This document shows, piece after piece, positions 4,670 through 19,739 of a stretch of 23,229 bases of DNA. The notes under the pieces were generated by a model. It did not search any database. It was not told where the DNA came from and saw nothing but the letters and a program-made list of their open reading frames with translations. The first letter of the stretch is position 1, and the number at the start of each line of letters is the position of its first letter. Both the position numbers and the translations under genes were made by a program. This DNA comes from a virus. The stretch covers positions 1 to 23,229 of the IMG/VR virus record IMGVR_UViG_3300036761_002433, one strand, 5' to 3'.

Positions 4670-4675
4670 TTGTGA

Positions 4676-6904: not shown

Positions 6905-6942
6905 TATACTCTAGGTGGAGAGAAGAGGAGGTTGCAGATGAC
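6889..6942 (+). promoter_or_regulatory. Second copy of the 54-bp direct repeat with operator and promoter-like boxes (site 4 of 4)
   Basis: Identical base for base to 6233-6286, 656 bases away, and again running from the last codons of one gene to the first codons of the next. TATACT lies at 6906-6911 and the ribosome binding site AGGAGG about 6 bases before the ATG at 6938. Perfect identity over 54 bases, while the bordering coding sequences differ, points to recent duplication, gene conversion or strong selection. The pair flanks two genes (6282-6904), which could be lost or gained by recombination between the copies. Confidence 0.6.
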
Positions 6943-7081: not shown

Positions 7082-7093
7082 AAGGAGGTTGCG

Positions 7094-7575: not shown

Positions 7576-7587
7576 AAGGAGCAACCG

Positions 7588-7803
7588 ATGACCGAAGGAC
7601 CGAACTACGAAGCGGAGGCCGACGAGGCCTTCAACGCCGCGATGGACGAGGCGAGCTACGAAGAGAAGAACGAGCCCATCCCCGGCGTGCAGTACCGCCT
7701 GACCGGCGGTCCCGACGTCCCGAGCATCCAGCGGGGCGACACCTGGGCCGCATCGCGCATCAAGCCGGGCGAAGACGCCCGCTTCACCATCATCAAGGTA
7801 TGA
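7588..7803 (+). CDS. Small acidic protein, 71 aa, unknown
   Basis: The first 32 residues are acidic and helical (EAEADEAFNAAMDEASYEEK). The rest (IPGVQYRLTGGPDVPSIQRG, then FTIIKV) is beta-like. AAAGGAG lies 7 bases upstream of the ATG. Its TGA overlaps the ATG of the following gene as ATGA. Acidic small phage proteins sometimes mimic DNA, but nothing specific supports that here. Function unknown. Confidence 0.65.
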   Translation: MTEGPNYEAEADEAFNAAMDEASYEEKNEPIPGVQYRLTGGPDVPSIQRGDTWAASRIKPGEDARFTIIKV

Positions 7804-8183
7804 ACCGCGAGGTCATCGTTCAGATGTGGTGCACGATGGCGGGCTACCGAGAGGAGAACGACGTGAGAGATACACCGAGGATGGGGCGAGGCCACTTCAA
7901 CGCGCTGGCGCGCGCGCTCGCGGAGACGCGCCCGACAGACAGCCCGAGCCGCCTGTCCCAATGGCGATACGACGTGCGCGCCATAGCGGAGGTCTGCTAC
8001 GACGCGTCGAACTTCACGCCGAACGGGAACCGCGCGTTCGACCAGGACCGATTCCTGAAGGCGTGCGGACTCGACCCCAACACCGAGCAGCGAGGACGCC
8101 ACACCCACGGGACCGGGCTCGTCCACAACCACAACGGCCAGTGGTGGACCCTGGAGCACGAGCACGCCGAGGTGAGCGCATGA
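7800..8183 (+). CDS. Small phage protein of a common accessory family, 127 aa
   Basis: MGRGHFNALARALAETRPTD, followed by a helical middle and RAFDQDRFLKACGLDPNTEQ, resembles a widespread family of small phage proteins with HF-x-x-LA...FD-x-x-RFL-x-ACG, of unknown function. The His-rich end (GRHTHGTGLVHNHNG) is unusual and might bind metal. The ATG at 7800 makes an ATGA overlap with the previous gene but has only a weak ribosome binding site. The GTG at 7863 has GGAG 6 bases upstream and would start close to where the family usually begins (106 aa). I keep the longer form because the gap would otherwise be large for this block. Confidence 0.62.
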   Translation: MNREVIVQMWCTMAGYREENDVRDTPRMGRGHFNALARALAETRPTDSPSRLSQWRYDVRAIAEVCYDASNFTPNGNRAFDQDRFLKACGLDPNTEQRGRHTHGTGLVHNHNGQWWTLEHEHAEVSA

Positions 8184-8311
8184 GGCCACGGCCGAAGCCC
8201 GTCGTCAAAGAGCTGCGTCCCGGCCTGTACGAGCTGTGGTTCGGGCAGTGGGTCCTGCTGGCGGGAACCGACCGGGAGCGGCTCGAAGAGCTGGCCGCTC
8301 TGATGGCCTAG
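8180..8311 (+). CDS. Very small protein, 43 aa, unknown
   Basis: The protein begins MRPRPKPVVKELRPGLYELW and ends with a helix TDRERLEELAALMA. The ATG at 8180 overlaps the previous stop (ATGA) and has GAGGTGA 4 bases upstream. The layout is a basic, Pro-rich start, a beta hairpin (GLYELWFGQWVLLAG) and one helix. No recognised family. Coupled translation and a good ribosome binding site support it. Confidence 0.55.
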   Translation: MRPRPKPVVKELRPGLYELWFGQWVLLAGTDRERLEELAALMA

Positions 8312-8312
8312 G

Positions 8313-8519
8313 ATGCAGACGCCTCGCCACGGTAGGCCCTCGAACGGCGGCGCATGGAAGCGCTGGCCGCTTCGAGCTATCGTCGAAACCCACGACCACA
8401 ACCGCTGCACCATCGAGGAGCTGGAGTGCGGCCACGCTCAGTACCGCAAGCGCCCCATCATGGGAAAGGAGGTGAAGTCAAGACGATGTCGAAAGTGTCC
8501 GCCCCTCGCGATAGACTGA
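8313..8519 (+). CDS. Small zinc-binding protein (CGH...CxxC), 68 aa
   Basis: The protein begins MQTPRHGRPSNGGAWKRWPL and carries LECGH (C39, H41) followed about 20 residues later by RRCRKC (C59, C62), a probable single zinc site. I recall small phage proteins with the same CGH...RRCxxC layout and no known function. It starts one base after the preceding stop; the only upstream purine run is weak. The end overlaps the start of the next gene by 34 bases, a large overlap for this block. A role as small DNA- or protein-binding factor is inference. Confidence 0.58.
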   Translation: MQTPRHGRPSNGGAWKRWPLRAIVETHDHNRCTIEELECGHAQYRKRPIMGKEVKSRRCRKCPPLAID

Positions 8520-8767
8520 ACGAGATGAAGCTCGAAACCCGTTATTTCGCCGACGTGAAAGGCAAGGGCCTGTACAAGGTCAACTGGGATACCACGCGCG
8601 ACGGATTCGCGGGAGGCGTCACCTTCGACCACCTCGCGAAGAGCTGGGGGCACCTGAACCCAGTCGCGTACTTCTCGGGCTTCGATGCGGAGCCGATGCA
8701 CGCGCTCTCCGCCGACGCCGCGCAACATCTGTTCGTGGGCTACGGCGGGGCTGCTGCGGACTTCTAG
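8486..8767 (+). CDS. Last gene of the plus-strand block, 93 aa, unknown
   Basis: From the ATG at 8486 the product begins MSKVSAPRDRLNEMKLETRY. The sequence AAGGAGGTGA, a perfect ribosome binding match, lies about 10 bases upstream, a little far. An ATG at 8525 (80 aa, MKLETRYFADVKGKGLYKVN) is the alternative and would remove most of the overlap with the previous gene. The sequence is soluble alpha/beta with several aromatic residues and no recognised motif. Its stop codon TAG shares CTAG with the stop of the convergent minus-strand gene, so no room for a terminator exists between the two opposing operons. Confidence 0.6.
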   Translation: MSKVSAPRDRLNEMKLETRYFADVKGKGLYKVNWDTTRDGFAGGVTFDHLAKSWGHLNPVAYFSGFDAEPMHALSADAAQHLFVGYGGAAADF

Positions 8768-10287
8768 CGATTGTCGTAGGTCGGCAGCGCGTCCATCCCA
8801 TCCGGTATCGGGATAAGCGCACCGAACGCAATCATCTTGCTCCCGGTCTCGGCCTTCAGCACGTCGTCGCCCGGCTCCGAATCCGCCACGCGCGCGGCGG
8901 CGTAGTAGGCGTGGTTCCCCGCCTCCTTGATGAAGTAGCTGTCGGCGGTGTGGAACTGGACCTCGAACTGCGCCCCGCTATCGGAGCGCCAGGTCGTGTT
9001 GTAGCCGAGGTAGGGCCCGCCCGAGTTGGTGTCCGCCTTAACCGGCTGGAAGCCCATCGACTCCAGCATGTCGCGCCCGGCCATCGCCTTCGTTGAGTAC
9101 TCGCCCTCAGGCACCACGATGGTGTAGCGAAGCGCATCGTAGATGTTCGCTCCCGCCGCGTCGGCGGTCATGCTCTTGGCGACGGAGTCCGCCGCAATCT
9201 TGCGCTGGAGCGAGTCCTCCGTCTTCGTTTCGTACTGCAACCCCTCCTGCGTCCCATCGAGCTGGTCGGCGACACTAGCGACCGCCAGGCCCACCTCCGT
9301 CCGCGCCTGCGCCGCCTGCTCGGCCAACGCCTGCGCGACGGGCGCGGCGGCGTCGAGCGCCGCTTGCCGCACGGGAGCCGTGCGCTCCTTCGCGTAAGCG
9401 ACCGCCTCGTCATAACTCGGTGGGAGCATGTTGTCCAGCCGCACGGCGGTCGAGACGATTTCCTCACTCAACTGCCCCTGCGCCTTGTCGCTCATCCCCA
9501 TCTTGACGAACGTCTCGACATGCGCTGAGCGCGCCGAGCCGGTCCCTTCGATGCCGCCCCCGCCCGAAGTCCAACGCCCTCTTTCGTCTCGCGCCTGGTC
9601 CTCGCTGAACTTCAGCAATAGCGACGTCGCTGCGCGCTCCGCCGCATCGAGCAGGTCGAGCGGGACGTCTGAATCCTTACGGAACCATCCGCGCACGCGC
9701 TCGCGGAACTTCATCAGCACCGGCTCGTTCGGCGCGAGCATGTCCATCATCGAGCGCTCGACATAGAGGCGCGCGAAGAGGCCGGAAGCGCGCATCGTCT
9801 CCTCCGAGAAGAACTTCTCCGAGTGCACCGCCTCGCCCGTGGTCGAGAACTCCGTCGCGATGATGCCGCCGAGTTCCCCCTCGGGAGTAACGGCGATGCG
9901 CTCACCGAACTGATTCGCGTAGGACCCGTTGCCCTGCGAGATGTAACCCGCGTTCTGCAGCTCCGCGTCGATTTCATCCAGCGCCGCAGCCCGGTCGTGG
10001 AAGGAACCGCCCTCGTCCCGCCCAACGGGGCCCGAAGGCCTCCCGCTCGGAACAGGAGCGGGGCCGGAGCCGCCGTAACCCGCCACGCCGCGCATCCCGA
10101 CCATGCCGCCCGCCATTCTCGCGGCTGCGGCGTCATCAGCGGAAGCGAAGCGTCCGAGGTGGTCGTGGCTGTCGTTGTACTTCTTGACGGGCTTCAGCTT
10201 GGCTGCAAGCGCTACGAGCTGCTCATCCGTCAGGGCGGCGAGGCGGCGCGCGAGCGCGTCATAGTCCGGCTCAGAAGTCGCCGCCAC
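8764..10287 (-). CDS. Virion-associated protein with RelA/SpoT-like C-terminal domain and two GRF/GRW motifs
   Basis: 507 residues. A first motif copy is at 35-50 (KKYNDSHDHLGRFAS) and a second at 226-244 (KFSEDQARDERGRWTSGGG). Residues 354-466 follow the layout of RelA/SpoT nucleotide pyrophosphokinase domains: K-T-E-D-S-L-Q-R-K-I (S359, K363), then YDALRYTIVV (D384, R387), YLGYNTTW, and FEVQFHT (E442) with a later GNHAYY. In the known family these positions bind ATP and magnesium and transfer pyrophosphate. By analogy this may be a toxic alarmone-type synthetase or tRNA-modifying relative; activity is inferred. Residues 100-220 form an unknown domain. The GTG start overlaps the previous gene by 17 bases and has GGGG about 7 bases upstream. 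It is the last gene before the plus-strand block. An ART fold is a less likely alternative. Confidence 0.72.
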   Translation of the reverse strand: MAATSEPDYDALARRLAALTDEQLVALAAKLKPVKKYNDSHDHLGRFASADDAAAARMAGGMVGMRGVAGYGGSGPAPVPSGRPSGPVGRDEGGSFHDRAAALDEIDAELQNAGYISQGNGSYANQFGERIAVTPEGELGGIIATEFSTTGEAVHSEKFFSEETMRASGLFARLYVERSMMDMLAPNEPVLMKFRERVRGWFRKDSDVPLDLLDAAERAATSLLLKFSEDQARDERGRWTSGGGGIEGTGSARSAHVETFVKMGMSDKAQGQLSEEIVSTAVRLDNMLPPSYDEAVAYAKERTAPVRQAALDAAAPVAQALAEQAAQARTEVGLAVASVADQLDGTQEGLQYETKTEDSLQRKIAADSVAKSMTADAAGANIYDALRYTIVVPEGEYSTKAMAGRDMLESMGFQPVKADTNSGGPYLGYNTTWRSDSGAQFEVQFHTADSYFIKEAGNHAYYAAARVADSEPGDDVLKAETGSKMIAFGALIPIPDGMDALPTYDNR

Positions 10288-12763
10288 CGACTATCCCCAG
10301 TTCTAGGAGCTTCTTCCAAGTATGGTGCATCGCCTTGTCGTGGTCGCGCTCCATCTTGGCGGACAAGTGCCTCTGCTCTTTCTGACTCAGATGGGAAATA
10401 GCGCCCGCGAGCGCGTTCACTTCCTTGTCATGTTTCCCAAGGTCTTGACCGCTTTCCGAAGGCCTGGTGGGCCCGCTGAAGCTGAACTCCCCGCTATGCG
10501 GGTCGTGGTTCTCGTTGTACTTCAGCAGGTCTTCAAGCTCGACCTCGATGGCGCGGCGCGCCTCCTTGACGGTGAGCGTCACGCCCTCGATGGTTACGAG
10601 GGTCTCGTCGTCATCCCACGAGCCAACGGAGAAAGGGGGCACCGTCGCCTTACCGTAAGGGTTGTACCCCTCGACCGCCTGCGCCCATCGCGGGTCGGTC
10701 CACATGGTGCGGTCCCCGCCACCCTCCGCAGCGGGCCCACCGCTCCCAACCGTGGTCTTGCCCGCGACGATGTCTTTCAGCTCGCTCTTGACCTCGCGCG
10801 CGACGTCCCCGCGCCACGAGCTGGCGTTCGAGAGGAAGTAGGAAACCACGCTCTTCGCGCTGTCGGCTCCGTAGTTGTCCTTGATGTCGTTGAGCTGCCC
10901 CATCGCATCGAGATAGGGCTTCGCAGCGAAGTTGACCTTCGACCCCCAGTCGCGCTTGATATCGGACGCGATGGTCGATAGCGGGCGATGGCCCGAGGCC
11001 GTGAGACTTCCACCACTTCCACGACTTCCACCACCCGACGACCACTTCCCCGTGTCATCACGAGGCTGGTCCTCGGAGAACTTCTGCACGAAGTCCACCT
11101 CAACGCGATGCGCGAAGCCGCCCATCGACAGGCCGCGAAGCTCGCCCGCCTTGACCTTCTTCCACGCCCACGGCTCCCACACGACGCCCATGTAGGCGGT
11201 ACCGGCCGGGAGCGTCGCTTTACGCACGACGCCCTTGGTCATGCCGGGCATCTGCATCTCGACCTCGGTCTCGTACGGCCACGCCATCAGCTCTACCCAC
11301 TCGCCCGCGCGCCTGCGCCCGTGTTGCAGCATGATGTCGCGCTTGCCCTTGCGGACGTAGTCCCAGATGCCCTCTTGCAACGTGTCGGGCGTCGTGAACT
11401 CGTCGTGCGCATCGAGACGGTCGGGGATGTAGAACGGGCCGAGCGTGAAGCGTTTCTCGTCGCTGGATTTCACGACGACGTAGGCCGCCTTGTTAGCGAA
11501 CTTCCCTTGCTCGTCTCGCGGATGCTCTGACTCATCCCAGTTCGAGCCACCGAGGGTAGCGCCCGACGTCGGGGCCTTCCCCGCCGCTATCCGCGAACGC
11601 GCCTCGGATAGCGCGTCCCCGTACTTGAACTTGTCGCGGAAACTCATCTTCTCGCCCGACGCGAGACTACGCATCGCCGCCTGAACCTGAGTCTCGTCAG
11701 GACCCTTCTTCGCTGGCCGATTCGCTACGGCGTCGGAGCCCGCTTGGAACGCGGGAGTCGCGCCCGCGCGCTTCTTGAACTGCGGGGGAACCTCACCCTT
11801 GCCCGATGCGGCAGGCGCGGCACCATCAGGCGGTCGCGGAGTGTCCGGCTCCTTCCACGTCTTCTCCCCGTCCCATCCCTGCGAGACGCGGTAGCTCGCC
11901 TCCTTGAACTCGGTCGGCGACGCGGCCTTCATGCCGAGCGCCTTCAGCTTCGCGAGCCCGCCCGCAAGCAACCCCGCCGCGATGAGCTGCGTGATGTGTT
12001 CGTCCGCGACCTTCACCGGCTCGGGCGCGACGGATGAGGCAGCGGCCGGTGGAGCTGACGCGGCGGCGGGCGGTATGTTCTTCGGGGGAAACGCCTTGGT
12101 CGTCTTCGACTGATTACGGTCCAGAGCCTCCGTCGTCGAGATGTCCCCCTGCCCGCTCTCCTGCCCCTCCGGGGGACCGGGGATGTCCGTCTCCTCCCCC
12201 GAGGTCTCGACCGGCACAGCAGAATCCTCTTCGGGCACTGGCATGTCCACGTAGGCGTTCGGCTTCAGATAGCCCAGCTCCACAAGATGCGCACGACGAG
12301 CCTCTGCCGCGTCGAGCAGGTCCTGGTGCTCCTTGTCCTTCACGTTCCACAGGTCGAGCAGCGCCTCGGGATGCTGCACGCGCGCGAGCCAGTAGAGCCC
12401 GTTCATGGGTCGACGCTCGGGCGCAACCTCACGCTCGGGCGTCGGTGGGATGGAGGGCTGAGCCTCCGGCGGCACCTGCCCCGGAAGGGCATTAGGGTCC
12501 GCCGGAGGGGCGGCCCCGTCCTGCGTAGACGAACTCGCGCCGCTAAGTTGGTCGAGGGTGTCAGACGGCAGGGCGTTGATGGCCGCGTCCAGCTCCTGCG
12601 GCGTCGCACCGAGGTCGCCCGTAAGGCGGTCCTGCATCGCCTGGAAGTCGAGCTGGAGCACGCCGGGATTCGATTGCAGATAGGAAACAATCGCATCCGG
12701 CGTTACGGCCTTATGCAGGAGCAGCTCCGAGACCAGGGAGCGCTCTAGGGCATCGAGGTCCAT
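10271..12763 (-). CDS. XkdF-type phage protease fused to motif-bearing flanking domains, 830 aa
   Basis: Residues 1-400 are a variable region with Pro/Ala-rich linkers. Residues about 427-557 match the XkdF putative phage serine protease: FTLGPFYIPDRLDAHDEF, H481 in MLQHG, AGEWVELMAWP, then GVVWEPWAWKKVKAGELRGL and S546 in GLSMGG. H481 and S546 are the likely catalytic pair. Motif copies lie just before the domain (408-423, NWDESEHPRDEQGKFA), just after it (561-579, KFSEDQPRDDTGKWSSGGG) and near the C-terminus (748-764, KYNENHDPHSGEFSFSG). A helical domain (590-740) and a charged tail follow. In related phages this protease matures the head, and its gene lies before scaffold and capsid, as here. 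The length is far above the usual protease, which is the odd feature. No good ribosome binding site precedes the ATG at 12763. Confidence 0.82.
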   Translation of the reverse strand: MDLDALERSLVSELLLHKAVTPDAIVSYLQSNPGVLQLDFQAMQDRLTGDLGATPQELDAAINALPSDTLDQLSGASSSTQDGAAPPADPNALPGQVPPEAQPSIPPTPEREVAPERRPMNGLYWLARVQHPEALLDLWNVKDKEHQDLLDAAEARRAHLVELGYLKPNAYVDMPVPEEDSAVPVETSGEETDIPGPPEGQESGQGDISTTEALDRNQSKTTKAFPPKNIPPAAASAPPAAASSVAPEPVKVADEHITQLIAAGLLAGGLAKLKALGMKAASPTEFKEASYRVSQGWDGEKTWKEPDTPRPPDGAAPAASGKGEVPPQFKKRAGATPAFQAGSDAVANRPAKKGPDETQVQAAMRSLASGEKMSFRDKFKYGDALSEARSRIAAGKAPTSGATLGGSNWDESEHPRDEQGKFANKAAYVVVKSSDEKRFTLGPFYIPDRLDAHDEFTTPDTLQEGIWDYVRKGKRDIMLQHGRRRAGEWVELMAWPYETEVEMQMPGMTKGVVRKATLPAGTAYMGVVWEPWAWKKVKAGELRGLSMGGFAHRVEVDFVQKFSEDQPRDDTGKWSSGGGSRGSGGSLTASGHRPLSTIASDIKRDWGSKVNFAAKPYLDAMGQLNDIKDNYGADSAKSVVSYFLSNASSWRGDVAREVKSELKDIVAGKTTVGSGGPAAEGGGDRTMWTDPRWAQAVEGYNPYGKATVPPFSVGSWDDDETLVTIEGVTLTVKEARRAIEVELEDLLKYNENHDPHSGEFSFSGPTRPSESGQDLGKHDKEVNALAGAISHLSQKEQRHLSAKMERDHDKAMHHTWKKLLELGIVGGGDF

Positions 12764-12793
12764 GGGCCAAGCCTAGACGCCCAGGGAGACCAA

Positions 12794-13339
12794 TCAGCCC
12801 CCGAGCCCCAACCCTTCGATGAGGGCTTCGGCGATGTCGGAGTCCGACGCGTCGCCCTTCACATAGACCTTCTCGACGGGCTTGGCCTTCATGACCTTGT
12901 ACTCGCCCGTGCCAGCATCGTAGATGGCCTTCTGCTCGTTCTCACGAGCAGCGGCCGTCGCTTCGTCGTCGTCCTGGATGTTCTCGCTCACGTCCAGATA
13001 CAATACACCCGTATCGACCCAGCCGCCCAGGTACACGTCCGGCGCGGCGAGAGCATCGGAGTGTGCGGCGCGGAACTCGCCCACGAAGCGCGCGACGTTG
13101 GCCTTGAACATGTCCACCGTCTGCCCCTCCCACGTCATCTTGCCACCTTCAGCAGAGAGCGCTTCGAGGGGCCGCGTCATCTCGGTGCCCTTCTGCGAGA
13201 CCATCCACCCCGTCTTCGGGGCGAGCCCTCCGTGCCCGACCGAGAAGCCGCCCGAACGAACAGCGGTTATACCCAGCCCGCCGACCGAAGACCACTTGCC
13301 GGTCTCATCGCGAGGCTGGTCCTCGCTGTACTTCAGCAT
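12794..13339 (-). CDS. Motif-led protein of unknown effector domain, 181 aa
   Basis: The protein starts directly with the motif (MLKYSEDQPRDETGKWSS), so the motif needs no N-terminal carrier. The remaining 160 residues form one domain containing VYLGGWVDTGVLYLDVSENI (103-121) and ENEQKAIYDAGTGEY. I recall similar G-x-W-x-x-G...LDVS...Q-x-AI-x-D domains in other phage head proteins and toxin-like proteins, of unknown activity. The ATG has only a weak upstream GACCGAG. The gene lies between the MuF gene region and the protease gene. A ligand of the other effectors, such as an antidote, is possible but unsupported. Confidence 0.7.
   Translation of the reverse strand: MLKYSEDQPRDETGKWSSVGGLGITAVRSGGFSVGHGGLAPKTGWMVSQKGTEMTRPLEALSAEGGKMTWEGQTVDMFKANVARFVGEFRAAHSDALAAPDVYLGGWVDTGVLYLDVSENIQDDDEATAAARENEQKAIYDAGTGEYKVMKAKPVEKVYVKGDASDSDIAEALIEGLGLGG
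13308..13334. repeat. 27-bp direct repeat inside motif-coding DNA (copy 1)
   Basis: These 27 bases are identical to 15496-15522 and encode K/Y-S-E-D-Q-P-R of the motif on the minus strand in both genes. A 15-base core (11061-11075) is shared with the middle motif of the protease protein. Identity extends through synonymous positions, so it reflects recent copying or recombination rather than protein selection alone. Confidence 0.8.
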
Positions 13340-13366
13340 CTCGGTCCGGGTGTCAGAGATAGTCGC

Positions 13367-13495
13367 TCACCGCCAGACCTTCCGATGGTCACGCGACTCA
13401 GAATGTTGCAACAGGTACACGAGCAGCGCGAGCGCGACAGGCTGAGCCTTGGCCTCGACCTTCGCGCGGACCGCCTCTATCTCGGCGCTGGTCAC
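13367..13495 (-). CDS. Possible small ORF after MuF, 42 aa
   Basis: A GTG-started frame reads (M)TSAEIEAVRAKVEAKAQPVA, then LALLVYLLQHSESRDHRKVW. It fills the 180-base space between the MuF gene and the next motif-led gene. The middle (PVALALLVYLLQ) is hydrophobic enough for a membrane-seeking helix, preceded by a charged helix. The ribosome binding site is weak and the start uncertain; the frame can extend to 13672, inside MuF. Accepted mainly because the space would otherwise be empty in a dense operon. Confidence 0.35.
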   Translation of the reverse strand: MTSAEIEAVRAKVEAKAQPVALALLVYLLQHSESRDHRKVWR

Positions 13496-13544
13496 GGGAC
13501 ATCTCGCCAGGTACGCCCGGTGGCGACGCGCTCGTCCAGAGACC

Positions 13545-14399
13545 TCACGCGCGCACCAGATTCTGCACGCAACGACAGCTTGGGTGGAGAGGCGGCGGTC
13601 CGTCGGGGAACTCATCGAACAGACCCACTTGCGTTCCGTCCAACGCGTCACACTCCTCGCACACGCCTTCATGCGATGCGTCCCATTCTTTCAGAACTTC
13701 ATCAACGCGGATGATGCCCTCTTCCGCGAGCTGTGTCCATCCCTCCATCCGCCCGGCGTTCTGCGCCGCCAACACCTCCGTCCGCGCAATCATGTACGCG
13801 CGCTGGTCCGCGAGCCGCTCGTAGTACGCGTCGGTCATCTCCGCCACGCGCGCGGGCGTGATGCCCTGCTCCTGAAGCCCCATGCCGTAGTTCACGACCG
13901 CCTGCGCCCATCGCGGGAACAGCGCGTTCTCCCCGAGCGCGGCGCGCACGAGCGGGATGGCGTCGTCCACGCCCATGCCCGCGCGGTACACGCGCCCGAT
14001 GACCGTTCGGATGGCCTCGCGTTGCTGCTCCGTGATGGACTTCACGAGCGCGGCCGTGCGCCGCTCAATCCACTTCTTCGTGCCCGGCGTCTGCGTGTCG
14101 AACCGGAGCGCGAGGCTCGCGGCGGGGGCGGCCTTCCGTAACGGAGCCGTATACGTCGGGTCGAGGTCCGCCCAACTTCCACCAGGTCCCGACGTGAACC
14201 GCCCTAGTTCATCGTGATACGGGTTCTCCTTCACGACCGCGCCCATCTGCCCGTACACGTCGAGCCCGGCCTGCTGGTAGGCCTTCAGCATCGCGGGACC
14301 GAGCACTTTCGTGAGCCGCAGCTCGAACATCGGCCAGGTCACCGAGGCGACGAGCGCCTTCGCGTCGCCCGTGCGCAGCGCATCACGCAGCGCGGTCAT
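13545..14399 (-). CDS. MuF-type minor head morphogenesis protein carrying a GRF motif
   Basis: 284 residues. The C-terminal half is a MuF (Mu gp30 / SPP1 gp7-like) domain: YMIARTEVLAAQNAGRMEGW (202-221), KEWDASHEGVCEECDALDG (C247, C250) and PPLHPSCRC (H272, C275, C277), the classic end of the family. MuF proteins are packaged in small numbers, act in head assembly and DNA ejection, and are known carriers of fused toxin domains. Here the motif (KENPYHDELGRFTSGPGG, 57-74) is inserted between an N-terminal helical part and the MuF core. The ATG at 14399 has no ribosome binding site. The frame stays open upstream without a usual start codon (residues such as ELKNALRANRVPIT), so the true N-terminus may be longer. 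It lies within the motif-bearing gene array. Confidence 0.85.
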   Translation of the reverse strand: MTALRDALRTGDAKALVASVTWPMFELRLTKVLGPAMLKAYQQAGLDVYGQMGAVVKENPYHDELGRFTSGPGGSWADLDPTYTAPLRKAAPAASLALRFDTQTPGTKKWIERRTAALVKSITEQQREAIRTVIGRVYRAGMGVDDAIPLVRAALGENALFPRWAQAVVNYGMGLQEQGITPARVAEMTDAYYERLADQRAYMIARTEVLAAQNAGRMEGWTQLAEEGIIRVDEVLKEWDASHEGVCEECDALDGTQVGLFDEFPDGPPPLHPSCRCVQNLVRA

Positions 14400-14434
14400 C
14401 GTGATGGGAACGCGGTTGGCGCGGAGAGCGTTCT

Positions 14435-14995
14435 TCAGCTCCCGGACCTGCGGCCCATCCTTACCCGCAGGGCGAAAGGGAGGCGGCCCCTGGCCTTGCC
14501 GACGACGACGGGACCCTTGCCCGGCTTCTTGTGCTTGCGCTTGACGGGGGGGACCGCGCCCATCGGGGCGTTGACGTGGACGTCGGCCATGTCGGGAGAC
14601 GCCTTGCGCACGCCATGGTACTCCCGAAGCTGTCGCACCATCTCGGTCGAGTTCGGAGGGGCCTCATCGCGGTCTATCGCGTTGTCGTACCAGTCCTCCG
14701 CCCGTTCGAGCGCATCGGGCAAGTCCGTCTCCAACGACTGGAACACCCGCGTGTGCGTGAGCTTGAAGAAATAGGCGTTCTTCCGGTCCTGCGCTACTTG
14801 ACGTTCTGGCGAGAGCTTCTTCGGCCCGTAGCTATTCCCGCCTCGACCCGATGTGAACTCCCCCGACTTCGGGTCATGGTTCTCGTTGTACTTGTTCACG
14901 CGCGCGCGTAGGCGCGCGAGGACCTCATCCGGTACGGGGCTCGTATGGCCCGCCTCTTCGCGCGTCGCGGGGAACGGGTCAGCTCGTTGGGCCAC
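14435..14995 (-). CDS. Motif-bearing protein with basic C-terminus, 186 aa
   Basis: I start it at the GTG at 14995, which has GGAAG 4 bases upstream and overlaps the previous gene by 17 bases; a longer frame to 15106 is a poor N-terminus. The motif (NKYNENHDPKSGEFTSGRGG, 34-53) follows a short helix. A helical domain with VFQSLETDLPDALERAEDWY comes next, then ADVHVNAPMGAVPP and a strongly basic end (VKRKHKKPGKG) that could bind DNA. The ADVHVNAP segment echoes DVHVNVPL at the start of the capsid protein, which may be chance. No enzyme motif is visible. It may be a small packaged DNA-binding protein (inference). Confidence 0.66.
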   Translation of the reverse strand: MAQRADPFPATREEAGHTSPVPDEVLARLRARVNKYNENHDPKSGEFTSGRGGNSYGPKKLSPERQVAQDRKNAYFFKLTHTRVFQSLETDLPDALERAEDWYDNAIDRDEAPPNSTEMVRQLREYHGVRKASPDMADVHVNAPMGAVPPVKRKHKKPGKGPVVVGKARGRLPFALRVRMGRRSGS

Positions 14996-16379
14996 TGTTC
15001 TTCCAATCTCTCGCGCCAGCCATCGGCGTTCCTTCCGTCCACGGGCCGTAGAAGCCAGTGCGCACCATCTCACCGATGGCCTCGTCCGTCGTGTACTCGT
15101 GCACATCCTGCGCCTGCCCGAGGTGCCTGTACAGCGCGTCCGGCATCACGACCGAGTTACCGCTGGACCAATCGTAGGCGTTGCGGAACATGACCGTCCC
15201 CGCCTGCGGATGGTCCACCCCTTGCCCATCCGCTTCGACCCACGAGTGACCGAAACGCACCCCCTCCAGCTCCCCGCGCCCCATCACCGTCGCCTGGATG
15301 ATGCGCACGTTCTGCAGGCCCAGCTCGTCCGCGTTCATCGCGAGGGTGACCGCCGCGTCATAGCAGTTGCCCGACCCCTGCGCGCGGATGTCCTCCTCGA
15401 CCCGCTTCCACGCGGGGGAGTTGGTGTCGGGGCCGACATCAACCACGTTGAGCTTGGTCGATGCGCCGCCGCCAGAGGCCCAGCGACCGTGCTCGTCGCG
15501 AGGCTGGTCCTCGCTGTACTTCGCCATCGCCATGCTCCAGCTTCTTTCGGGCGCTGGCCGCGATGACACGACCATCACGTCCTTCGGGTCGAATACCACG
15601 AGCCAGTCGTACGCCGACGGCCCCGCGTAGGTGTTCTGGATGCGTAGCCCGTCGTATCCCGCCGCCTTGAACGCATCCTGCATGGTCGAGTAATACTTCG
15701 CCGGGTCCTCCGCGCTTCCGCTCGCACCACGACCACCCGACGCCGCTATCGCCGAGTCGTAAACCGCCTGACCGTCCGGCAGGTACTCGATGGCCGCATC
15801 GGCGATGTTGTCTTCGTGCTGAAGGTTCACGGTCAACAGGTTCTGCACGTTCACATAGGCCGTCTGCAAGTTGGGCACCGTATCGGCCGCAACCCCCGTC
15901 ACCGCCGGTGACATCTGCTTGACCGGGTCCAGCCCGAAGTAGACGCCCGCTCCCCACTTTCCGCTCGATGCAGAACGCATCCCGTCACGCATCACCGCCG
16001 CGTTATCGGTCGAGCCCAGGTGATAGACCGGCTGCGTCACCTGAGAATCCTTCGCGAACGCCCTTCCCTCTTCCGGCGTTCCCGCGAGGCTACCGTCGCC
16101 GCTAGACCACGCCGCTGGCCGCCCCCCGATGCCCCCACTCGTCCACATGCCCTTCTCGTCCCGAGGCTGGTCGGGATTGAAGTCCTTGCGCACGGCCGCG
16201 TGCTGCACGACCGCGAGCACCACCTGGTCCTGCTCCGCGTCACGCCAGTAGCCGCGCGCGCTGAGCGCGAGCAGGGAGCGGGGGTGGTCCGAAAGGACCT
16301 CGCTCTGCGTCGCGATGACACCGTCCATCCCATCGAGGTCCACCAGGAAACGGTCGCCGTCGCGCGCGAGAACTTTCAC
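14979..16379 (-). CDS. Two-effector protein: ADP-ribosyltransferase-like and Cys-His (papain/TGase-like) domains, each behind a motif
   Basis: The GTG start at 16379 overlaps the previous stop (GTGA) and has GGAG 6 bases upstream; it is better than a GTG four codons earlier. Of 466 residues, the first 60 form a small beta domain. Motif 1 (KDFNPDQPRDEKGMWTSGG) lies at 65-83. Residues about 117-272 look like an ADP-ribosyltransferase: VYHLGSTDNAAVMRDGM (H120), GAGVYFGLDP (Y147), then GYDGLRIQN and WLVVFDPKDVMVV. Motif 2 (KYSEDQPRDEHGRWASGGG) lies at 287-305, followed by a domain with GNCYDAAVTLA (C339), FGHSWVEADG (H378) and D389, consistent with a papain or transglutaminase-like catalytic set. 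Two motif-domain units in tandem suggest modular assembly. The ART call is moderate and the Cys-His call weaker. Confidence 0.7.
   Translation of the reverse strand: MKVLARDGDRFLVDLDGMDGVIATQSEVLSDHPRSLLALSARGYWRDAEQDQVVLAVVQHAAVRKDFNPDQPRDEKGMWTSGGIGGRPAAWSSGDGSLAGTPEEGRAFAKDSQVTQPVYHLGSTDNAAVMRDGMRSASSGKWGAGVYFGLDPVKQMSPAVTGVAADTVPNLQTAYVNVQNLLTVNLQHEDNIADAAIEYLPDGQAVYDSAIAASGGRGASGSAEDPAKYYSTMQDAFKAAGYDGLRIQNTYAGPSAYDWLVVFDPKDVMVVSSRPAPERSWSMAMAKYSEDQPRDEHGRWASGGGASTKLNVVDVGPDTNSPAWKRVEEDIRAQGSGNCYDAAVTLAMNADELGLQNVRIIQATVMGRGELEGVRFGHSWVEADGQGVDHPQAGTVMFRNAYDWSSGNSVVMPDALYRHLGQAQDVHEYTTDEAIGEMVRTGFYGPWTEGTPMAGARDWKNSGPTS
15496..15522. repeat. 27-bp direct repeat inside motif-coding DNA (copy 2)
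   Basis: Identical to 13308-13334. It lies at the junction between the ADP-ribosyltransferase-like and the Cys-His domain of the two-effector gene, exactly where a domain exchange by homologous recombination would join two modules. Confidence 0.8.
16167..16188. repeat. 22-bp direct repeat inside motif-coding DNA (copy 1)
   Basis: These 22 bases are identical to 17525-17546 and encode K-D-F-N-P-D-Q on the minus strand. The similarity continues, with a few differences, for about 50 bases through the rest of the motif (CACATGCCCTT is shared, encoding the K-G-M-W part). This is a second sub-family of motif DNA, distinct from the 27-bp one. Confidence 0.78.
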
Positions 16380-17710
16380 GGCGGACTCCACTTCCCCCGG
16401 GACGTGTACTGCGAAACAGACCAGGGGATACCCGCTGCATCAAGACGCGCCGTGATGACGGGGTCGACCTGCTCCGAGATACGGAATACGACCTCGGAGA
16501 TATCGCTCATCCTCACGCCCCCGAATATCTGCGCCTCGACGTAGCCGGACGAGAGGCGCTCGGGGTTCAGCTCCGCGTCCATGAAGGGCGGAACGGTCTC
16601 CGGGATTATCGCCCCCAGTCGGAACCGATACGCCCCGGCGGTTTCGGTCGCCCATGAAGGGCTGAATATCTGCGCCTCGACGTCGGGATTCACGTCCAAA
16701 CTCTCGATATCATGCCCCGCCGTGCCCATCCGCCAGCCCTCGGCGTAAACGCCCGAACTTCCCGCACCAGGAGCGAGCGCGGATTGCCGCCAGGTCACGT
16801 CGGTCATCGGCTCGGGGATGGCGGTTCGGTCCAACGAATCCAGCGATGACACTGTCGTGCGTTCAGCCACGTCAGCGTTCAGCACGAGTGACACGTCTCC
16901 GTATTGACTGACACCGGAACCGTCTGAGCCATCGAGGTCCCCGACATAACCGTAGATGGGCCGGTCCGTACCCGGCACCCCTGTCTTCGGCAAGCCGAAC
17001 AGCTCCGATTCCGCATCCTTGCGGACACCGGGTGCATACGAGCCGTTGGAATCATGCGTGAGGAACTGGTTCTTCAACCCCTCGTCGAGCACCGAGGCGA
17101 GATTGTGCGAATCGACCATCACGCACGCGCGCGAGTCGTCGTAGAACTGCTGCGCGTTAGCCTGCATCGTGTCGAGCACCGTCTGCAACGGGATGCCCTT
17201 CTCGTCGGCGTAGAGCTGGATACCGGGCAGGACGCGCTCGTCGAACGCCGTCACGTAGCCCTGGCTCGCCTGTACCTCACGACCGTTGATGTCCATCATC
17301 GGCGCGCGGTCCGTGCCCGGCGCGACGTCCAGCTCCACGTCGTACTTCATGCCGACGATACGTTCGGTCATCGCGTAACCAGGCTTCAAGGGCGCGCGGT
17401 CACCATGCATCCACAACGCCGGATACCGCAGGTCTGCTTCACCTCGCCGGGACATGCCCGGCTCGGGCGTGAGCGTGAGTCGCCCCCCCGGAGCCTTCGT
17501 CCACATGCCCTTGTCGTCTCGCGCCTGGTCGGGATTGAAGTCCTTGTGGAACGGCGCGTTGAACTTGCGGAAGCGCTCCCACAGCGCGCGCAGGCCGCGT
17601 GACTTCTGCACCCTTGGAGAAGAGGGGTTTCCCCGTAGCGGGGGGGCGGGACGGCCGTGCACAAGCTCGTCCTCGCGTTCAGCCATCACGGCGGCGGACG
17701 GGACAGTCAT
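16376..17710 (-). CDS. Motif-bearing protein with ADP-ribosyltransferase-like (DUF3626-like) effector domain, 444 aa
   Basis: The ATG at 17710 makes an ATGA overlap with the previous gene; a longer frame to 17875 lies inside that gene. The motif (KDFNPDQARDDKGMWTKAPG) is at 56-75. The rest follows a layout I know from phage proteins and DUF3626-like domains: VMVDSHNLASVLDEGLKNQF (198-216), DRPIYGYVGDL (249-259), YGDVSLVLNADVAERTTVSS (270-289) with DSLD, and near the end YVEAQIFGGVRMSDISEVVF. The E of VEAQIFGG (392) is a candidate catalytic residue by comparison with ART-type folds. DVEAQIFSPSW (343-353) is a second, similar segment. The predicted role is a packaged or injected modifying enzyme. 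The fold assignment is by eye and moderate. Confidence 0.68.
   Translation of the reverse strand: MTVPSAAVMAEREDELVHGRPAPPLRGNPSSPRVQKSRGLRALWERFRKFNAPFHKDFNPDQARDDKGMWTKAPGGRLTLTPEPGMSRRGEADLRYPALWMHGDRAPLKPGYAMTERIVGMKYDVELDVAPGTDRAPMMDINGREVQASQGYVTAFDERVLPGIQLYADEKGIPLQTVLDTMQANAQQFYDDSRACVMVDSHNLASVLDEGLKNQFLTHDSNGSYAPGVRKDAESELFGLPKTGVPGTDRPIYGYVGDLDGSDGSGVSQYGDVSLVLNADVAERTTVSSLDSLDRTAIPEPMTDVTWRQSALAPGAGSSGVYAEGWRMGTAGHDIESLDVNPDVEAQIFSPSWATETAGAYRFRLGAIIPETVPPFMDAELNPERLSSGYVEAQIFGGVRMSDISEVVFRISEQVDPVITARLDAAGIPWSVSQYTSRGKWSPP
17525..17546. repeat. 22-bp direct repeat inside motif-coding DNA (copy 2)
   Basis: Identical to 16167-16188, in the neighbouring gene about 1.36 kb away and in the same orientation. 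Recombination between the copies would fuse the N-terminal part of one gene to the effector of the other. Confidence 0.78.
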
Positions 17711-18762
17711 GCGAGCACCGTATCGCGCATGTAGTCCACCATGCTCTTCGCTTCGGGGCGGAGCGCCGCGTACTGCTCGTCGCTCATCCGTATCGCGCTC
17801 ACGAACGTCTCCGCGAAGCCCTCCTGCGGATTCTCCAACGAGTAGAGGGAGAGCCCGCCGGACGGGCGGTTCCATAACCCGTTGTCGCCCTTGGTCCTAA
17901 CGTCGCTCGTCGCGTAGTCGGCCCAGTAGGTCTCCCACGCAGCGTTGGACGGGAGCTGGTCCTGGATGGCGTGCGCGTACTCGTGGATGAGCACGTCCTG
18001 CATGTTCGAGGACTGAACGTAGGCCATCGGCTTGAACCCGAAGACGGGATTCGGGGACGCCGGGATGCTCGGGTCGTTTCCGAACACGATGACCGCGTTC
18101 TCGTTCAGCGTCTCGGCGACGCTGCCCATCGGGTCCACTAGCCCATGAAATCCCGAACCGCCCGCCACAATGAACACCGGGAGGTCGTACTTGTCGAGCG
18201 GAAGCCCCGCTACCGAAGACAAACTCGCCGCCGCATCCGCCACCGTCGTCTCGAACTCGCGATTCAGCGAGGGGTTCGCCTGCGAGTAGTTCGGGTTGCT
18301 CGTCAAGTTCGTCGCGACCGCCTCGACCGCCTTATCCGACGTGAGCCAATCAGACTGCCCGAGCCACGCCTTCTGGTACTCGTTCAGCCCCTGGTTCATC
18401 GCGTACGCACTGAGCGCGCCCGAGTGATAGTCCTCCAGGAACTTCTGGCGCACCATGCTCGCGACCGCGCGCGTCGCGTCCATCTTGTCGCCCGCCAGCG
18501 GCACGACCTTGCCGGACGATGAGCCCGGCCCGCTCGCGAACCGCCCCAGCTCGTCGTGATAGGGGTTGTCCTTGCGCAACGCGTCCGCGATGGTCCGCGC
18601 GCGCGGATTGTCCGTCGCCCAGTGGAAGATAGGGAAGCGCGCCGACAGGATAGGTCCGGTCTTCGCCTCATCGCGGATGGCCTCCGCGTCGAGCATGTCC
18701 GGGTCGAGGTCAGCCGTCGGGTCGGGCGGCCCGTGACGCGGGTCGAGATAGGTGGTGGTCAT
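17707..18762 (-). CDS. Motif-bearing predicted zinc metallopeptidase (zincin), 351 aa
   Basis: The ATG at 18762 overlaps the previous stop (ATGA); a GGAGG lies rather far upstream. Residues 1-60 are a variable N-terminus with an aspartate-rich start (DPRHGPPDPTADLDPDMLDA). The motif (KDNPYHDELGRFASGPGSS) is at 64-82. The C-terminal half is a zincin: VLIHEYAHAIQDQL gives H260-E261-x-x-H264, and ENPQEGFAETF gives a likely third ligand, E318 (E314 is an alternative). The spacing and the ET-F segment fit gluzincin-type toxin peptidases. No signal peptide is present, which fits a protein delivered by the virion rather than secreted. The substrate is unknown. It could act on host wall-linked or intracellular proteins, or in head maturation. 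Confidence 0.76.
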   Translation of the reverse strand: MTTTYLDPRHGPPDPTADLDPDMLDAEAIRDEAKTGPILSARFPIFHWATDNPRARTIADALRKDNPYHDELGRFASGPGSSSGKVVPLAGDKMDATRAVASMVRQKFLEDYHSGALSAYAMNQGLNEYQKAWLGQSDWLTSDKAVEAVATNLTSNPNYSQANPSLNREFETTVADAAASLSSVAGLPLDKYDLPVFIVAGGSGFHGLVDPMGSVAETLNENAVIVFGNDPSIPASPNPVFGFKPMAYVQSSNMQDVLIHEYAHAIQDQLPSNAAWETYWADYATSDVRTKGDNGLWNRPSGGLSLYSLENPQEGFAETFVSAIRMSDEQYAALRPEAKSMVDYMRDTVLA

Positions 18763-19739
18763 ACCCGCGCCCCCCTCCCTGCGGGTCTGTACAGGTCAGC
18801 ATAGACCCACGCCGTCGCCTGCGTTTGGGAGTTGGTCTGGTCCGGCGGGACGATGCCCTCCGCTATCGCGCGCTCCGTCGCGGCCATGACCCCCTCCGAC
18901 AAGACCGCGTACGCGGGAGACATCTGCACGTCGCCCATGTACTTCGGCGCTCCGGCCGACAGCATGCTCCTCACCTGCTCCTGCGTCACGGCGGAGTTGT
19001 CCGCCAAGTACGCGCCCATCCAAGTGTCGTTCGTTATCTCATCCGACCCGACCGGGTCCATCGCGTTGTCGAAGAAGCTCCGCCGCTTCGCGCCCGTTAC
19101 CGCCTCATCGACGTTCAACGTGCCGTTCAACAACCCGACGACGGCCTCTCCGAACCCCTTCCCCCGGAAGTACTCCAACCCGTCCTGCGCGTCGATACGC
19201 TCCTGGAGCGTGGTCGCGCCGTCGAACTCTCCCCGCTGCGCAGCGGCAAGGAAGTTCTCCGCGACGTCGAGATTGCGATAGACCGTCTCGCCCGCCTCGT
19301 TCTCGTAGCTCCAGGGGGTCTGCGCGGAGGTGATGGCGATGACCGCCGCGACCTCATCGAGAGAACGCCCGTACTTGTCCGCAAGCGCCTGTGCCTTGTC
19401 CTGAAACTCCTGCTGGTACCAGACCGCACCCGACGCGCGCGCGGCCGGGTCCTTCAGCGTCGCGTACAGCGCGTCCGTCAGCCCGACCATATCGACGCCG
19501 TTCTTCATAGCCCAGCCCGCGATGCCCGCTTGCGCTGCGGGAGCCATATCCGCGAGGCGCACGGGGGAGTTGCCGCCGAGGTCCGTCCACCTCCCCGCCT
19601 CGTCTCGCAGTTGGTCATCGGAGTACTTCTGCACGGATTGCAGCTTCAGGAACGGGTGCTGCGGCCCCTGATACTTGCGGACGACGACGCGCGCCTGCGC
19701 CATGACCTCACGCGGGCCGAGCTGCGGCGACAGCGGCAT
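18759..19739 (-). CDS. Motif-bearing phage protein (DUF7178-like), 326 aa
   Basis: The motif (KYSDDQLRDEAGRWTDLGG) lies at 38-56 after a short N-terminus. The following domain has AVWYQQEFQDKAQALADKYG (105-124), then AAVIAITSAQTPWSYEN (131-147) and later TNDTWMGAYLADNS. This resembles phage proteins with WY-x-x-A...G...vaaviAaLSP-x-x-W-x-x-N, which I associate with DUF7178 (from memory). Their helical layout recalls helix-hairpin-helix DNA glycosylases, but activity is not shown. The gene overlaps the portal by 32 bases. An ATG at 19703, four bases after the portal stop, is an alternative start (314 aa); neither has a good ribosome binding site. It is the first of the nine motif-bearing genes. 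Confidence 0.7.
   Translation of the reverse strand: MPLSPQLGPREVMAQARVVVRKYQGPQHPFLKLQSVQKYSDDQLRDEAGRWTDLGGNSPVRLADMAPAAQAGIAGWAMKNGVDMVGLTDALYATLKDPAARASGAVWYQQEFQDKAQALADKYGRSLDEVAAVIAITSAQTPWSYENEAGETVYRNLDVAENFLAAAQRGEFDGATTLQERIDAQDGLEYFRGKGFGEAVVGLLNGTLNVDEAVTGAKRRSFFDNAMDPVGSDEITNDTWMGAYLADNSAVTQEQVRSMLSAGAPKYMGDVQMSPAYAVLSEGVMAATERAIAEGIVPPDQTNSQTQATAWVYADLYRPAGRGARV

What the first reader, a model, noticed from the sequence alone, without database searches (positions are those of the whole stretch)
8764..19739. Array of nine genes sharing a short KYSEDQPRDExGRW-type motif, 13 copies, in front of varied effector-like domains
Seen: 13 copies of K-[YF]-[SN]-[ED]-[DN]-[QH]-P-R-D-[DE]-x-G-[RKME]-[WF]-[TSA]-S-G-G or its NPYHDELGRF form. 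They lie in nine consecutive minus-strand genes from just after the portal to the protease and RelA/SpoT-like genes, and in none of the other genes. The flanking domains are unrelated to each other: DUF7178-like, zincin, two ART-like, Cys-His, MuF, XkdF protease, RelA/SpoT-like and unknowns. Known: MuF proteins carry toxin domains in many temperate phages, and T4 packages internal proteins (including the ART Alt) using a tag cleaved by its prohead protease. Inference: this motif is a shared head-packaging or processing tag, making a multi-gene cargo of injected effectors.
Basis: partly seen in the sequence, partly recalled or inferred. Interest (0 to 1): 0.92.

Follow-up and report, generated by a model that had tools for sequence, protein, structure and literature searches.

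The report
Phage effector-module border peptide
A short, strongly conserved peptide stands in front of many unrelated enzyme-like domains encoded next to the head genes of this phage and of many others, and probably marks them as cargo to be carried in the virus particle into the next bacterium.

Summary
In detail: 13 copies, nine minus-strand genes, none elsewhere. The peptide is widespread, not chance: at least 119 viral stretches match QPRD[DE]xG[RK]W, 6 the reversed pattern. Proteins found by the peptide alone include portals, MuF and head proteases, and effector domains such as ADP-ribosyltransferases, Acb1, Zeta toxin and deamidase. It marks module starts: homology begins beside it in both proteins 52 times of 293, null 7.9. 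It lies between portal and toxin. Within a phage the protein sequence is kept while codons are nearly randomised. A second dialect, KHxxHDQxxHGxWA, precedes the same modules elsewhere. gJ holds an alarmone synthetase that other phage records carry in head-morphogenesis proteins; gC has an ADP-ribosyltransferase fold. I read the peptide as a phage-specific border or address tag for virion cargo, working like T4's capsid targeting sequence. Packaging, cutting and injection are inferred. Against: mixed bacterial-genome hits, one array far from the portal, no established protease partner.

The parts
19572..19628 (-). motif copy 1, gA, KYSDDQLRDEAGRWTDLGG
18523..18579 (-). motif copy 2, gB, LRKDNPYHDELGRFASGPG (HD form)
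17486..17542 (-). motif copy 3, gC, DFNPDQARDDKGMWTKAPG
16128..16184 (-). motif copy 4, gD first, DFNPDQPRDEKGMWTSGGI
15465..15521 (-). motif copy 5, gD second, KYSEDQPRDEHGRWASGGG
14840..14899 (-). motif copy 6, gE, VNKYNENHDPKSGEFTSGRG (HD form with one more residue)
14181..14237 (-). motif copy 7, gF (MuF), VVKENPYHDELGRFTSGPG
13277..13333 (-). motif copy 8, gH, at its very N-terminus, KYSEDQPRDETGKWSSVGG
   Evidence: pLDDT about 38 in the model of gH
11483..11539 (-). motif copy 9, gI, just before the XkdF protease domain, WDESEHPRDEQGKFANKAA
11027..11083 (-). motif copy 10, gI, just after the XkdF protease domain, KFSEDQPRDDTGKWSSGGG
10469..10528 (-). motif copy 11, gI, LLKYNENHDPHSGEFSFSGP
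10132..10188 (-). motif copy 12, gJ first, VKKYNDSHDHLGRFASADD
9556..9612 (-). motif copy 13, gJ second, in front of the alarmone-synthetase module, KFSEDQARDERGRWTSGGG
18759..19739 (-). gA, 326 aa, weak DUF7178-like domain behind the motif
   Evidence: PF23802 26.2 bits, cut-off 27; leader and motif 73% identical to one L090 ORF, a distant gA-like module (27%) behind a motif in another L090 ORF
17707..18762 (-). gB, 351 aa, zincin-like (IHEYAHAIQ) behind the motif
   Evidence: PF15890 E 8.7e-4, below cut-off
16376..17875 (-). gC, 499 aa, ADP-ribosyltransferase-fold module behind the motif
   Evidence: PF12294; model of aa 181-499, mean pLDDT 63, best PDB matches SopF Z 12.6 and DarT Z 12.1-10.5
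14979..16391 (-). gD, 470 aa, two motif-led modules (first looks ART-like, second has GNC and GHSW; by eye only)
   Evidence: no supporting Pfam match, no PDB sequence match for the first module
14435..15106 (-). gE, 223 aa, motif then unknown module
13545..14399 (-). gF, 284 aa, MuF minor head protein carrying one motif copy
   Evidence: PF04233 42 bits; phrog_3517
12794..13339 (-). gH, 181 aa, stand-alone copy of a module that elsewhere also sits inside long ORFs, behind either dialect
10271..12763 (-). gI, 830 aa, XkdF-type head protease (aa 429-555) with three motif copies and a further module at aa 592-666
   Evidence: PF14550 41 bits; phrog_13953
8764..10287 (-). gJ, 507 aa, alarmone-synthetase module behind the second motif copy
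   Evidence: profile of the window module and 29 relatives hits 8vx3 (SaSAS) E 1.2e-27; relatives in head-morphogenesis proteins of other phage records
19708..22161 (-). portal protein with intein; no motif; upstream edge of the array
   Evidence: PF06074 and LAGLIDADG; L090 portal lacks the intein

Best explanation
The peptide is a border tag that stands N-terminal to exchangeable effector modules meant to travel in the phage head. Modules carry their own copy, whether encoded alone, behind a short leader, strung in a polyprotein, or hung on a structural carrier (portal or MuF). Something in that phage's head-assembly machinery reads the peptide, so phages use their own dialect. After ejection the modules act on the host or its defences. 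Shown here: the motif, its spread, its position before modules, module exchange at it, dialects, purifying selection on the protein sequence, a low-confidence (probably disordered) model, and head-gene and effector-domain company.
For: Retrieval by motif alone yields head proteins and effectors: of 108 non-redundant motif ORFs (the 108 shortest of 139), 13 match ADPrib_exo_Tox, 11 Phage_portal, 9 MuF, 6 Portal_Mu, 2 each Acb1, Zeta toxin and glutamine deamidase; of 107 length-matched ORFs without motif from the same loci no ART family has two or more members (13 of 108 against at most 1 of 107, Fisher p 0.0013). Module borders: with the motif masked, alignments begin within about 40 residues of a motif in both proteins 52 of 293 times (null 7.9, sd 2.7, max 17) and end so before one 48 of 293 (null 4.7, sd 2.2, max 12). 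Carrier-motif-cargo order: portal-motif-deamidase (L276), portal-motif-PBECR3 RNase (L247). Leader position: first motif within 80 aa of the start in 69 of 139 and 163 of 224 complete ORFs of the two dialects (nulls 39 and 62), last motif under 60 aa from the C-end in only 12 and 5. Copies grow with ORF length, Spearman 0.42 (n=176) and 0.71 (n=267). Dialects: the same modules behind either peptide, 15 mixed clusters of 169, best pair 64% identical over 230 aa starting 3 and 1 residues after the motifs. Motif identity within phages 0.555, between 0.418, permutation maximum 0.465. Where residues agree, codons are identical at 0.549 (expected 0.502) in the window and 0.498 (0.439) in L286 with eight nearly identical peptides, so old copies held by selection rather than fresh duplicates. 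Motif pLDDT about 38 in gH. A relative of the gJ cargo lies in proteins annotated as head morphogenesis or minor head in 22 of 30 listed phage records. T4 precedent: T-even internal proteins are diverse and share only a conserved targeting sequence (PMC3012670, passages).
Against: No virion proteomics exists here for any motif phage. Bacterial-genome hits are mixed: 66 of 119 loci reach 15 bits, phage families are few among the 25 of 120 families shown for 150 neighbour ORFs, and 9 of 58 of their modules resemble viral ones. In G003 9 of 12 copies lie in an ORF about 30 kb from the portal. In 70 of 139 complete first-dialect ORFs the first copy is more than 80 aa in. 11 of 42 long records show no S78, S78_2, S14 or S49 protease. 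The copies flanking the window's protease are not seen beside its 54 printed relatives, save a partial look-alike in four. Proteases 51% identical go with different dialects. Portal and MuF fusions would not need a targeting tag, and the Acb1 domain of L037 has no motif next to it. 115 of 169 module clusters are singletons.
Confidence: 0.55

Rival explanations
1. The peptide is only a cutting site: a head-maturation (or other) protease recognises it and separates cargo modules from each other and from portal or MuF; entry into the head is by other means (leader, carrier).
For: Sits at portal-toxin borders where no targeting tag is needed; about one copy per module in polyproteins, e.g. L286 with ART, GNAT, ART and a gH-like module between near-identical copies; low pLDDT; 31 of 42 long records hold an S78 or S78_2 match.
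Against: Stand-alone modules such as gH carry the copy at the very N-terminus with almost nothing to cut off. 11 of 42 records lack any of four protease families. Dialect does not follow protease similarity. A conserved stretch this long is more than the prohead proteases of T4 or phiKZ are known to need (recalled).
Confidence: 0.22
2. The peptide is a passive hinge: a favoured joint at which domains are shuffled, with no recognition by other proteins.
For: Breakpoints between relatives fall at it: gA and gE match L090 ORFs up to and including the motif and not behind it; Gly-rich tail, low pLDDT.
Against: A DNA joint does not explain exchange between dialects, whose peptides differ, nor near-identical peptides with nearly randomised codons, nor the N-terminal position and rarity near C-ends.
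Confidence: 0.13
3. The peptide acts after ejection, in the recipient cell: it helps the cargo unfold through the tail, cross the envelope or be freed by a host factor, like the border before the toxin in Rhs or CdiA proteins (recalled).
For: Position between carrier and toxin resembles polymorphic toxins; the same toxin families occur (PBECR, RNAse_A_bac, Tox-REase-5).
Against: Dialects differ between phages with related head modules; no immunity genes recognised between the window's modules, apart from one 101-aa ORF of unknown role.
Confidence: 0.08

Closest known systems
T4 internal proteins and Alt with the capsid targeting sequence (CTS)
   Same: Functionally diverse defence proteins that share only a short conserved targeting sequence (PMC3012670, passages read); an ADP-ribosyltransferase (Alt) is head cargo in T4 (PMC5512222, passages).
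   Different: Here the peptide is inside polyproteins, about one per module, at portal and MuF borders, in at least two dialects, and in phages with Mu-type portals and S78 or XkdF proteases. No sequence comparison with the T4 CTS was made.
MuF polymorphic toxins (Jamet et al. 2017, PMC5576092; passages read) and MuF-Apk2 (PMC12226406; passages read)
   Same: Head-gene location, variable C-terminal toxin; the gJ module is related to the alarmone-synthetase modules of Streptococcus, Pasteurella and Mannheimia phage records annotated mostly as head-morphogenesis or minor head proteins.
   Different: Eight of the nine window genes have no MuF domain; a short peptide stands in its place; no recognised immunity gene, whereas in Javan119 a hydrolase gene follows soon after. 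The words 'motif' and 'linker' do not occur in the main text of PMC5576092.
Polyvalent proteins of phages and conjugative elements (Iyer et al. 2017, PMC5512222; passages read)
   Same: Several effector domains in one chain near virion genes; several of the same domains (ART, PBECR, 2H, RelA/SpoT), there fused to MuF or portal.
   Different: That paper has no occurrence of 'linker' or 'short motif'; the border peptide and its dialects are what is new here.
SPN3US ejection proteins (PMC7411985, PMC10052503; starts of abstracts in search listings only)
   Same: Many proteins packed in the head and ejected, some cut by the prohead protease.
   Different: Giant phage; no shared peptide of this kind mentioned in what I saw.

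Membership tests
T4-type CTS cargo | short sequence shared by otherwise unrelated proteins, N-terminal to the functional part | tested here: met
T4-type CTS cargo | protein found inside the head and ejected | not testable with these tools
   needs virion proteomics
T4-type CTS cargo | tag removed by the prohead protease | not testable with these tools
   a protease match is present in 31 of 42 long records; cutting itself not seen
T4-type CTS cargo | sequence homology to the T4 CTS | not tested
   no comparison made
MuF polymorphic toxin | N-terminal MuF domain fused to a C-terminal toxin | tested here: not met
   only gF has MuF (PF04233) and it shows no toxin domain; the other eight genes have no MuF match
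MuF polymorphic toxin | cognate immunity gene next to the toxin gene | tested here: inconclusive
   only one 101-aa ORF was picked out between array genes; its role is unknown
Polyvalent proteins | two or more effector domains in one polypeptide in a virion-gene context | tested here: met
   L286 and L037; in the window gD, gI and gJ carry two or three motif-led stretches, though few of these have a named domain
(p)ppApp synthetase (Apk-like) for the gJ module | alarmone-synthetase family with RYT and GxN signatures | tested here: met
   profile hit 8vx3 E 1.2e-27; gJ letters DALRYT and YLGYN against signatures named in PMC12226406; activity untested
ADP-ribosyltransferase fold for gC | ART fold | tested here: met
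   nine top rows are SopF (Z 12.6, 12.2) and DarT (Z 12.1-10.5); 66 chains compared, model mean pLDDT 63; catalysis untested
S-adenosylmethionine lyase for gH | fold or sequence match | tested here: inconclusive
   best PDB matches are SAM lyases but Z only 3.3 and 3.2; no Pfam match in gH

The most novel reading that the evidence does not exclude
Many tailed phages share an undescribed addressing code for virion cargo: exchangeable anti-defence and host-takeover modules, often strung in polyproteins, each led by a phage-specific dialect of one short peptide that the head machinery reads to load them and set them free. The same cargo can ride on MuF, on the portal, or on the peptide alone.
Probability: 0.45. 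Interest if true: 0.92.

Novelty: new variant of a known kind. Interest (0 to 1): 0.8.

Why it matters
If true, the peptide is a finder for virion-borne effectors: a domain behind it becomes a candidate anti-defence or host-takeover enzyme, and most such modules here have no name. It would explain how phages without MuF fusions load many different proteins, and it makes a testable question of how cargo enters and leaves tailed-phage heads. The set seen here includes ADP-ribosyltransferases, an alarmone synthetase, deamidases, Zeta toxin and RNases, with anti-CBASS Acb1 in a motif-bearing ORF.

Tried and rejected
Chance: rejected. Fresh duplication or gene conversion: not supported. Protease flanked by its own sites as a general rule: the window shows it, its relatives do not. 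Protease-specific dialects: not supported. 'Only between portal and capsid': not general.

gH as SAM lyase: weak lead only. gD modules: only L090 was a relative among held loci and the first module had no PDB sequence match, so the ART-like and Cys-His labels stay unproven. In one search the last search (gB) ended with an empty alignment and its printed row repeats the one before, so it says nothing about gB. One search's codon test was empty through a length slip and was redone.

Isolated phages: no near DNA relative of 8764-19739. Motif-only tblastn is too weak for such short queries: six weak rows (E 8-9), two (a prohead protease of MW202897, E 1, and a portal of a Nitrososphaera provirus, E 7), none. 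The MW202897 stretch (L278) does carry two copies in that protease ORF and a weaker one in the portal ORF, but it is a metagenome-type record. So I know no isolated phage with a strong motif.

Limits of the counts: motif loci were fetched by the motif, so prevalence among all phages is unknown. Pfam of motif ORFs used 108 of 139 (the 31 longest left out for the residue limit); control ORFs 107 of the 108 drawn from 952; module representatives 150 of 163; genome neighbours 150 ORFs from 53 of 63 loci. Family lists of alignment scans show 25 rows only. Module clusters are single-linkage and the largest mix domains. The second-dialect profile was built from the loci it was run on. The five loci fetched by the protease look like close copies of one lineage. 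The low pLDDT of the motif in gH could also reflect an alignment that mixes dialects.

Absence from print: text strings of both dialects gave two unrelated papers and none; topic searches showed no description of it in their listings. The library lacks most subscription journals and all bioRxiv preprints.
Full report
The window is a whole IMG/VR virus record of 23,229 bases. Its minus strand carries a portal with an intein, then nine genes with the motif, then, beyond a block of plus-strand ORFs, a scaffold-like protein, a small protein and a capsid-like protein (the last three named by eye). The core is D-[EDHP]-x(1,2)-G-[RKME]-[WF], often with K-[YF]-x-x-x-Q-P-R or N-x-x-H before it and [TSA]-x-G-G behind.

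The motif is not chance and not private to this phage. A pattern for the HDExGRF form gave 27. With the window's profile at 15 bits or more, 175 copies lie in 96 of the 119 loci, 42 copies in all 25 new loci of the HDE scan, and none in the 6 control loci.

What carries it was tested without using gene context. I took 139 non-redundant motif ORFs of at least 120 aa and scanned the 108 shortest (residue limit). Pfam: ADPrib_exo_Tox 13, Phage_portal 11, Phage_Mu_F 9, Portal_Mu 6, DUF7178 3, ART-PolyVal 3, ART 3, Peptidase_S78 2, Acb1 2, Zeta_toxin 2, 2_5_RNA_ligase2 2, Gln_amidase 2, and single Pesticin, RNAse_A_bac, SprT-like, ParB_N, acetyltransferase and others (an ORF can match several). PHROGs adds portal, head maturation protease, head morphogenesis and Alt-like ART. 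As control, 107 length-matched ORFs without motif from the same loci gave terminase, portal, MuF, capsid and S78 families, with no ART family in two or more members. The loci are head regions either way; the effectors go with the motif (13 of 108 against at most 1 of 107, Fisher p 0.0013).

The motif marks where modules begin. With motifs masked, 293 alignments (at most 70% identity) between motif ORFs of different contigs start within about 40 residues of a motif in both proteins 52 times and end so before one in both 48 times; sliding the alignments at random gives 7.9 (sd 2.7, maximum 17 of 500) and 4.7 (sd 2.2, maximum 12). gH is the plainest case: 181 aa and stand-alone here, stand-alone in L069 and L060, and inside ORFs of 842, 1316, 474, 475, 722, 450 and 1537 aa elsewhere; in all nine the match begins at a motif (the motif was not masked there). 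In the near relative L090 (portal 96-98% identical) gD is kept at 96% and gC at 87%, but gC as the last module of a 910-aa ORF. The leader and motif of gA are kept in one L090 ORF while a distant gA-like module (27%) lies behind a motif in another; gE is alike only up to the motif; gB only around it. Copies per ORF rise with ORF length (Spearman 0.42, n=176; median spacing 229 aa, n=58).

Order matters. In ORFs complete within their locus the first copy lies within 80 aa of the start in 69 of 139 (null 39, sd 5, maximum 55), and the last copy is less than 60 aa from the C-end in 12 of 139. So the peptide tends to lead a module rather than merely join two; in the other 70 the first copy is further in. 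In fusions the order is carrier-motif-cargo. Of ten bacterial-genome ORFs that I picked, most of them long, seven have a portal domain and in all seven the motif follows it by 43-67 aa; behind it come a glutamine deamidase in L276 and a PBECR3 RNase in L247. In L260 a weak MuF match is followed by motif and a weak PBECR3. L037 is one 1505-aa ORF with portal, anti-CBASS Acb1 and MuF, then motif, module, motif, module; no motif lies next to its Acb1. L286 has an 892-aa ORF with ART, GNAT, ART and a gH-like module and a 1321-aa ORF with three ADPrib_exo_Tox stretches, each ORF with four copies of KYSEDQERDDHGR[WF].

There is a second dialect. Loci fetched by the window's protease domain lacked the motif in 5 of 5 (they look like one lineage), but L284 repeats K-H-x-x-H-D-Q-x-x-H-G-x-W-A in such places, among them before its gH-like module. 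In them a profile finds 468 copies in 120 of 120 loci (profile built from them), up to 13 per locus; copies track ORF length with Spearman 0.71 (n=267) and spacing has a median of 208 aa, quartiles 197-240. Here the first copy lies within 80 aa of the start in 163 of 224 complete ORFs (null 62, sd 7, maximum 87), and the last is under 60 aa from the C-end in 5. The same modules follow both dialects: of 169 clusters of 708 modules, 15 are mixed; the best pair is 64% identical over 230 aa and starts 3 and 1 residues after the two peptides. The dialects are nearly exclusive: 6 loci hold both, of 136 with the first and 125 with the second. Some mixed clusters are chained by single linkage, but the best pairs are direct.

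Selection acts on the peptide. Within a phage, copies of the first dialect are 0.555 identical, between phages 0.418; 1000 label permutations reach at most 0.465. Where residues agree, codons agree at 0.549 against 0.502 expected from codon use in the window, and at 0.498 against 0.439 in L286, whose eight peptides are almost the same. The copies therefore look old or independent and kept at protein level. In the AlphaFold2 model of gH the motif region (1-28) has pLDDT near 38, while most of residues 31-150 are at 84-95.

The cargo. gJ: a profile of the window module and 29 relatives hits the PDB chain 8vx3 'SaSAS', E 1.2e-27. A paper on exported alarmone synthetases uses that name once for the Streptomyces albidoflavus enzyme (PMC12691689, passages); that the entry is this protein is my inference. 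gJ has the RYT and GxN signatures given for (p)ppApp synthetases (PMC12226406, passages). A relative (L309) finds 42 phage records, 33 of Streptococcus; of the 30 listed, 22 are annotated as head-morphogenesis or minor head proteins, 1 as capsid and scaffold, 7 as hypothetical. In Javan119 that gene lies between portal and capsid and is soon followed by a hydrolase gene. So the same cargo seems to ride on a MuF-type head protein there (MuF taken from PMC12226406 and the gene slot, not tested here) and on the short peptide here. gC: ART fold, SopF Z 12.6 and DarT 12.1-10.5. gH: unknown, with weak likeness to SAM lyases and several short, stand-alone phage relatives. gI: an XkdF protease plus a module (aa 592-666) that matches hypothetical proteins of actinophages. 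gA and gB: weak DUF7178 and zinc-peptidase matches. gD and gE: unknown.

Mechanism. A targeting tag explains the copy on stand-alone modules such as gH, where almost nothing precedes it, and matches T4, whose internal proteins are diverse with only a conserved targeting sequence in common (PMC3012670, passages). A cutting site explains copies at portal borders and between cargo modules. I join the two, as in T4 where tag and cutting go together (recalled), and hold the cutting step as the less certain half. The protease evidence is thin: S78_2 in 25 (22 over the cut-off) and S78 in 8 of 42 long records, 31 together; the 11 others show neither S14 nor S49, though records may be fragments. Among 54 printed relatives of the window's protease I saw neither dialect in the 25 residues before or 40 after the domain; four distant ones (L025, L083, L134, L148) have a partial look-alike there, such as DDNGRFLGG, which may belong to their own domain. 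The window and L284 have proteases 51% identical but different dialects. What reads the peptide is unknown.

Results against. In bacterial genomes the pattern gave at least 119 stretches, 66 with 15 bits or more. Of 51 non-redundant ORFs 5 match Phage_portal, 4 carry RNAse_A_bac, and PBECR, S78 and Gln_amidase occur, but among 150 neighbour ORFs phage families are a minority of the 25 of 120 families shown and 9 of 58 modules resemble viral ones. Some may be remnants, some chance; a group of related proteins with KAGFNPxQPRDExGRWT-like motifs in Afipia and other Alphaproteobacteria is unexplained. In G003 9 of 12 copies lie in a 2912-aa ORF at about 43.9-51.7 kb, with the portal at 12.7-13.6 kb. 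No particle has been examined.

Verdict. T4 and MuF toxins make it a variant of a known kind; the peptide, its dialects and its polyproteins were not found in print in the searches named under Tried and rejected.

Noticed in passing
19708-22161, about aa 211-538 of the portal: Intein with LAGLIDADG domain inside the portal; the L090 portal, 96-98% identical outside it, lacks it. PHROG 'terminase' matches to this region are probably inteins of other genes.
   Followed up: partly
4144-8767, plus strand: A block of plus-strand ORFs (including one of 425 aa at 4676-5953) interrupts the minus-strand head module between gJ and the scaffold-like gene.
   Followed up: no
L037 8551-13065 (-): Anti-CBASS Acb1 domain inside a single ORF with portal and MuF: a possible pre-loaded anti-CBASS.
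   Followed up: partly
L286 2-6585 (+); same contig as L298: Polyprotein-like pair of ORFs with eight near-identical motif copies and five ADPrib_exo_Tox stretches, plus one copy of the second dialect.
   Followed up: yes
L022 record G003, about 43.9-51.7 kb: An ORF of 2912 aa with nine motif copies far from the portal gene.
   Followed up: no
L178, L196, L208, L214, L220, L224: Six related motif-led modules of unknown function in bacterial genome loci, Alphaproteobacteria by their titles.
   Followed up: partly
L279 (Arthrobacter phage Edmundo): A phage with an XkdF protease related to gI has genes annotated as ssDNA-binding, nuclease, RNase and RecA-like between terminase and capsid, without the motif.
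   Followed up: no
L285 3094-6537 (+): A possible further variant lacking the QP part (TRDAQGRWVKG, LRDERGRFATSGG) before acetyltransferase-like and gH-like modules; modules other than gH named by eye.
   Followed up: no
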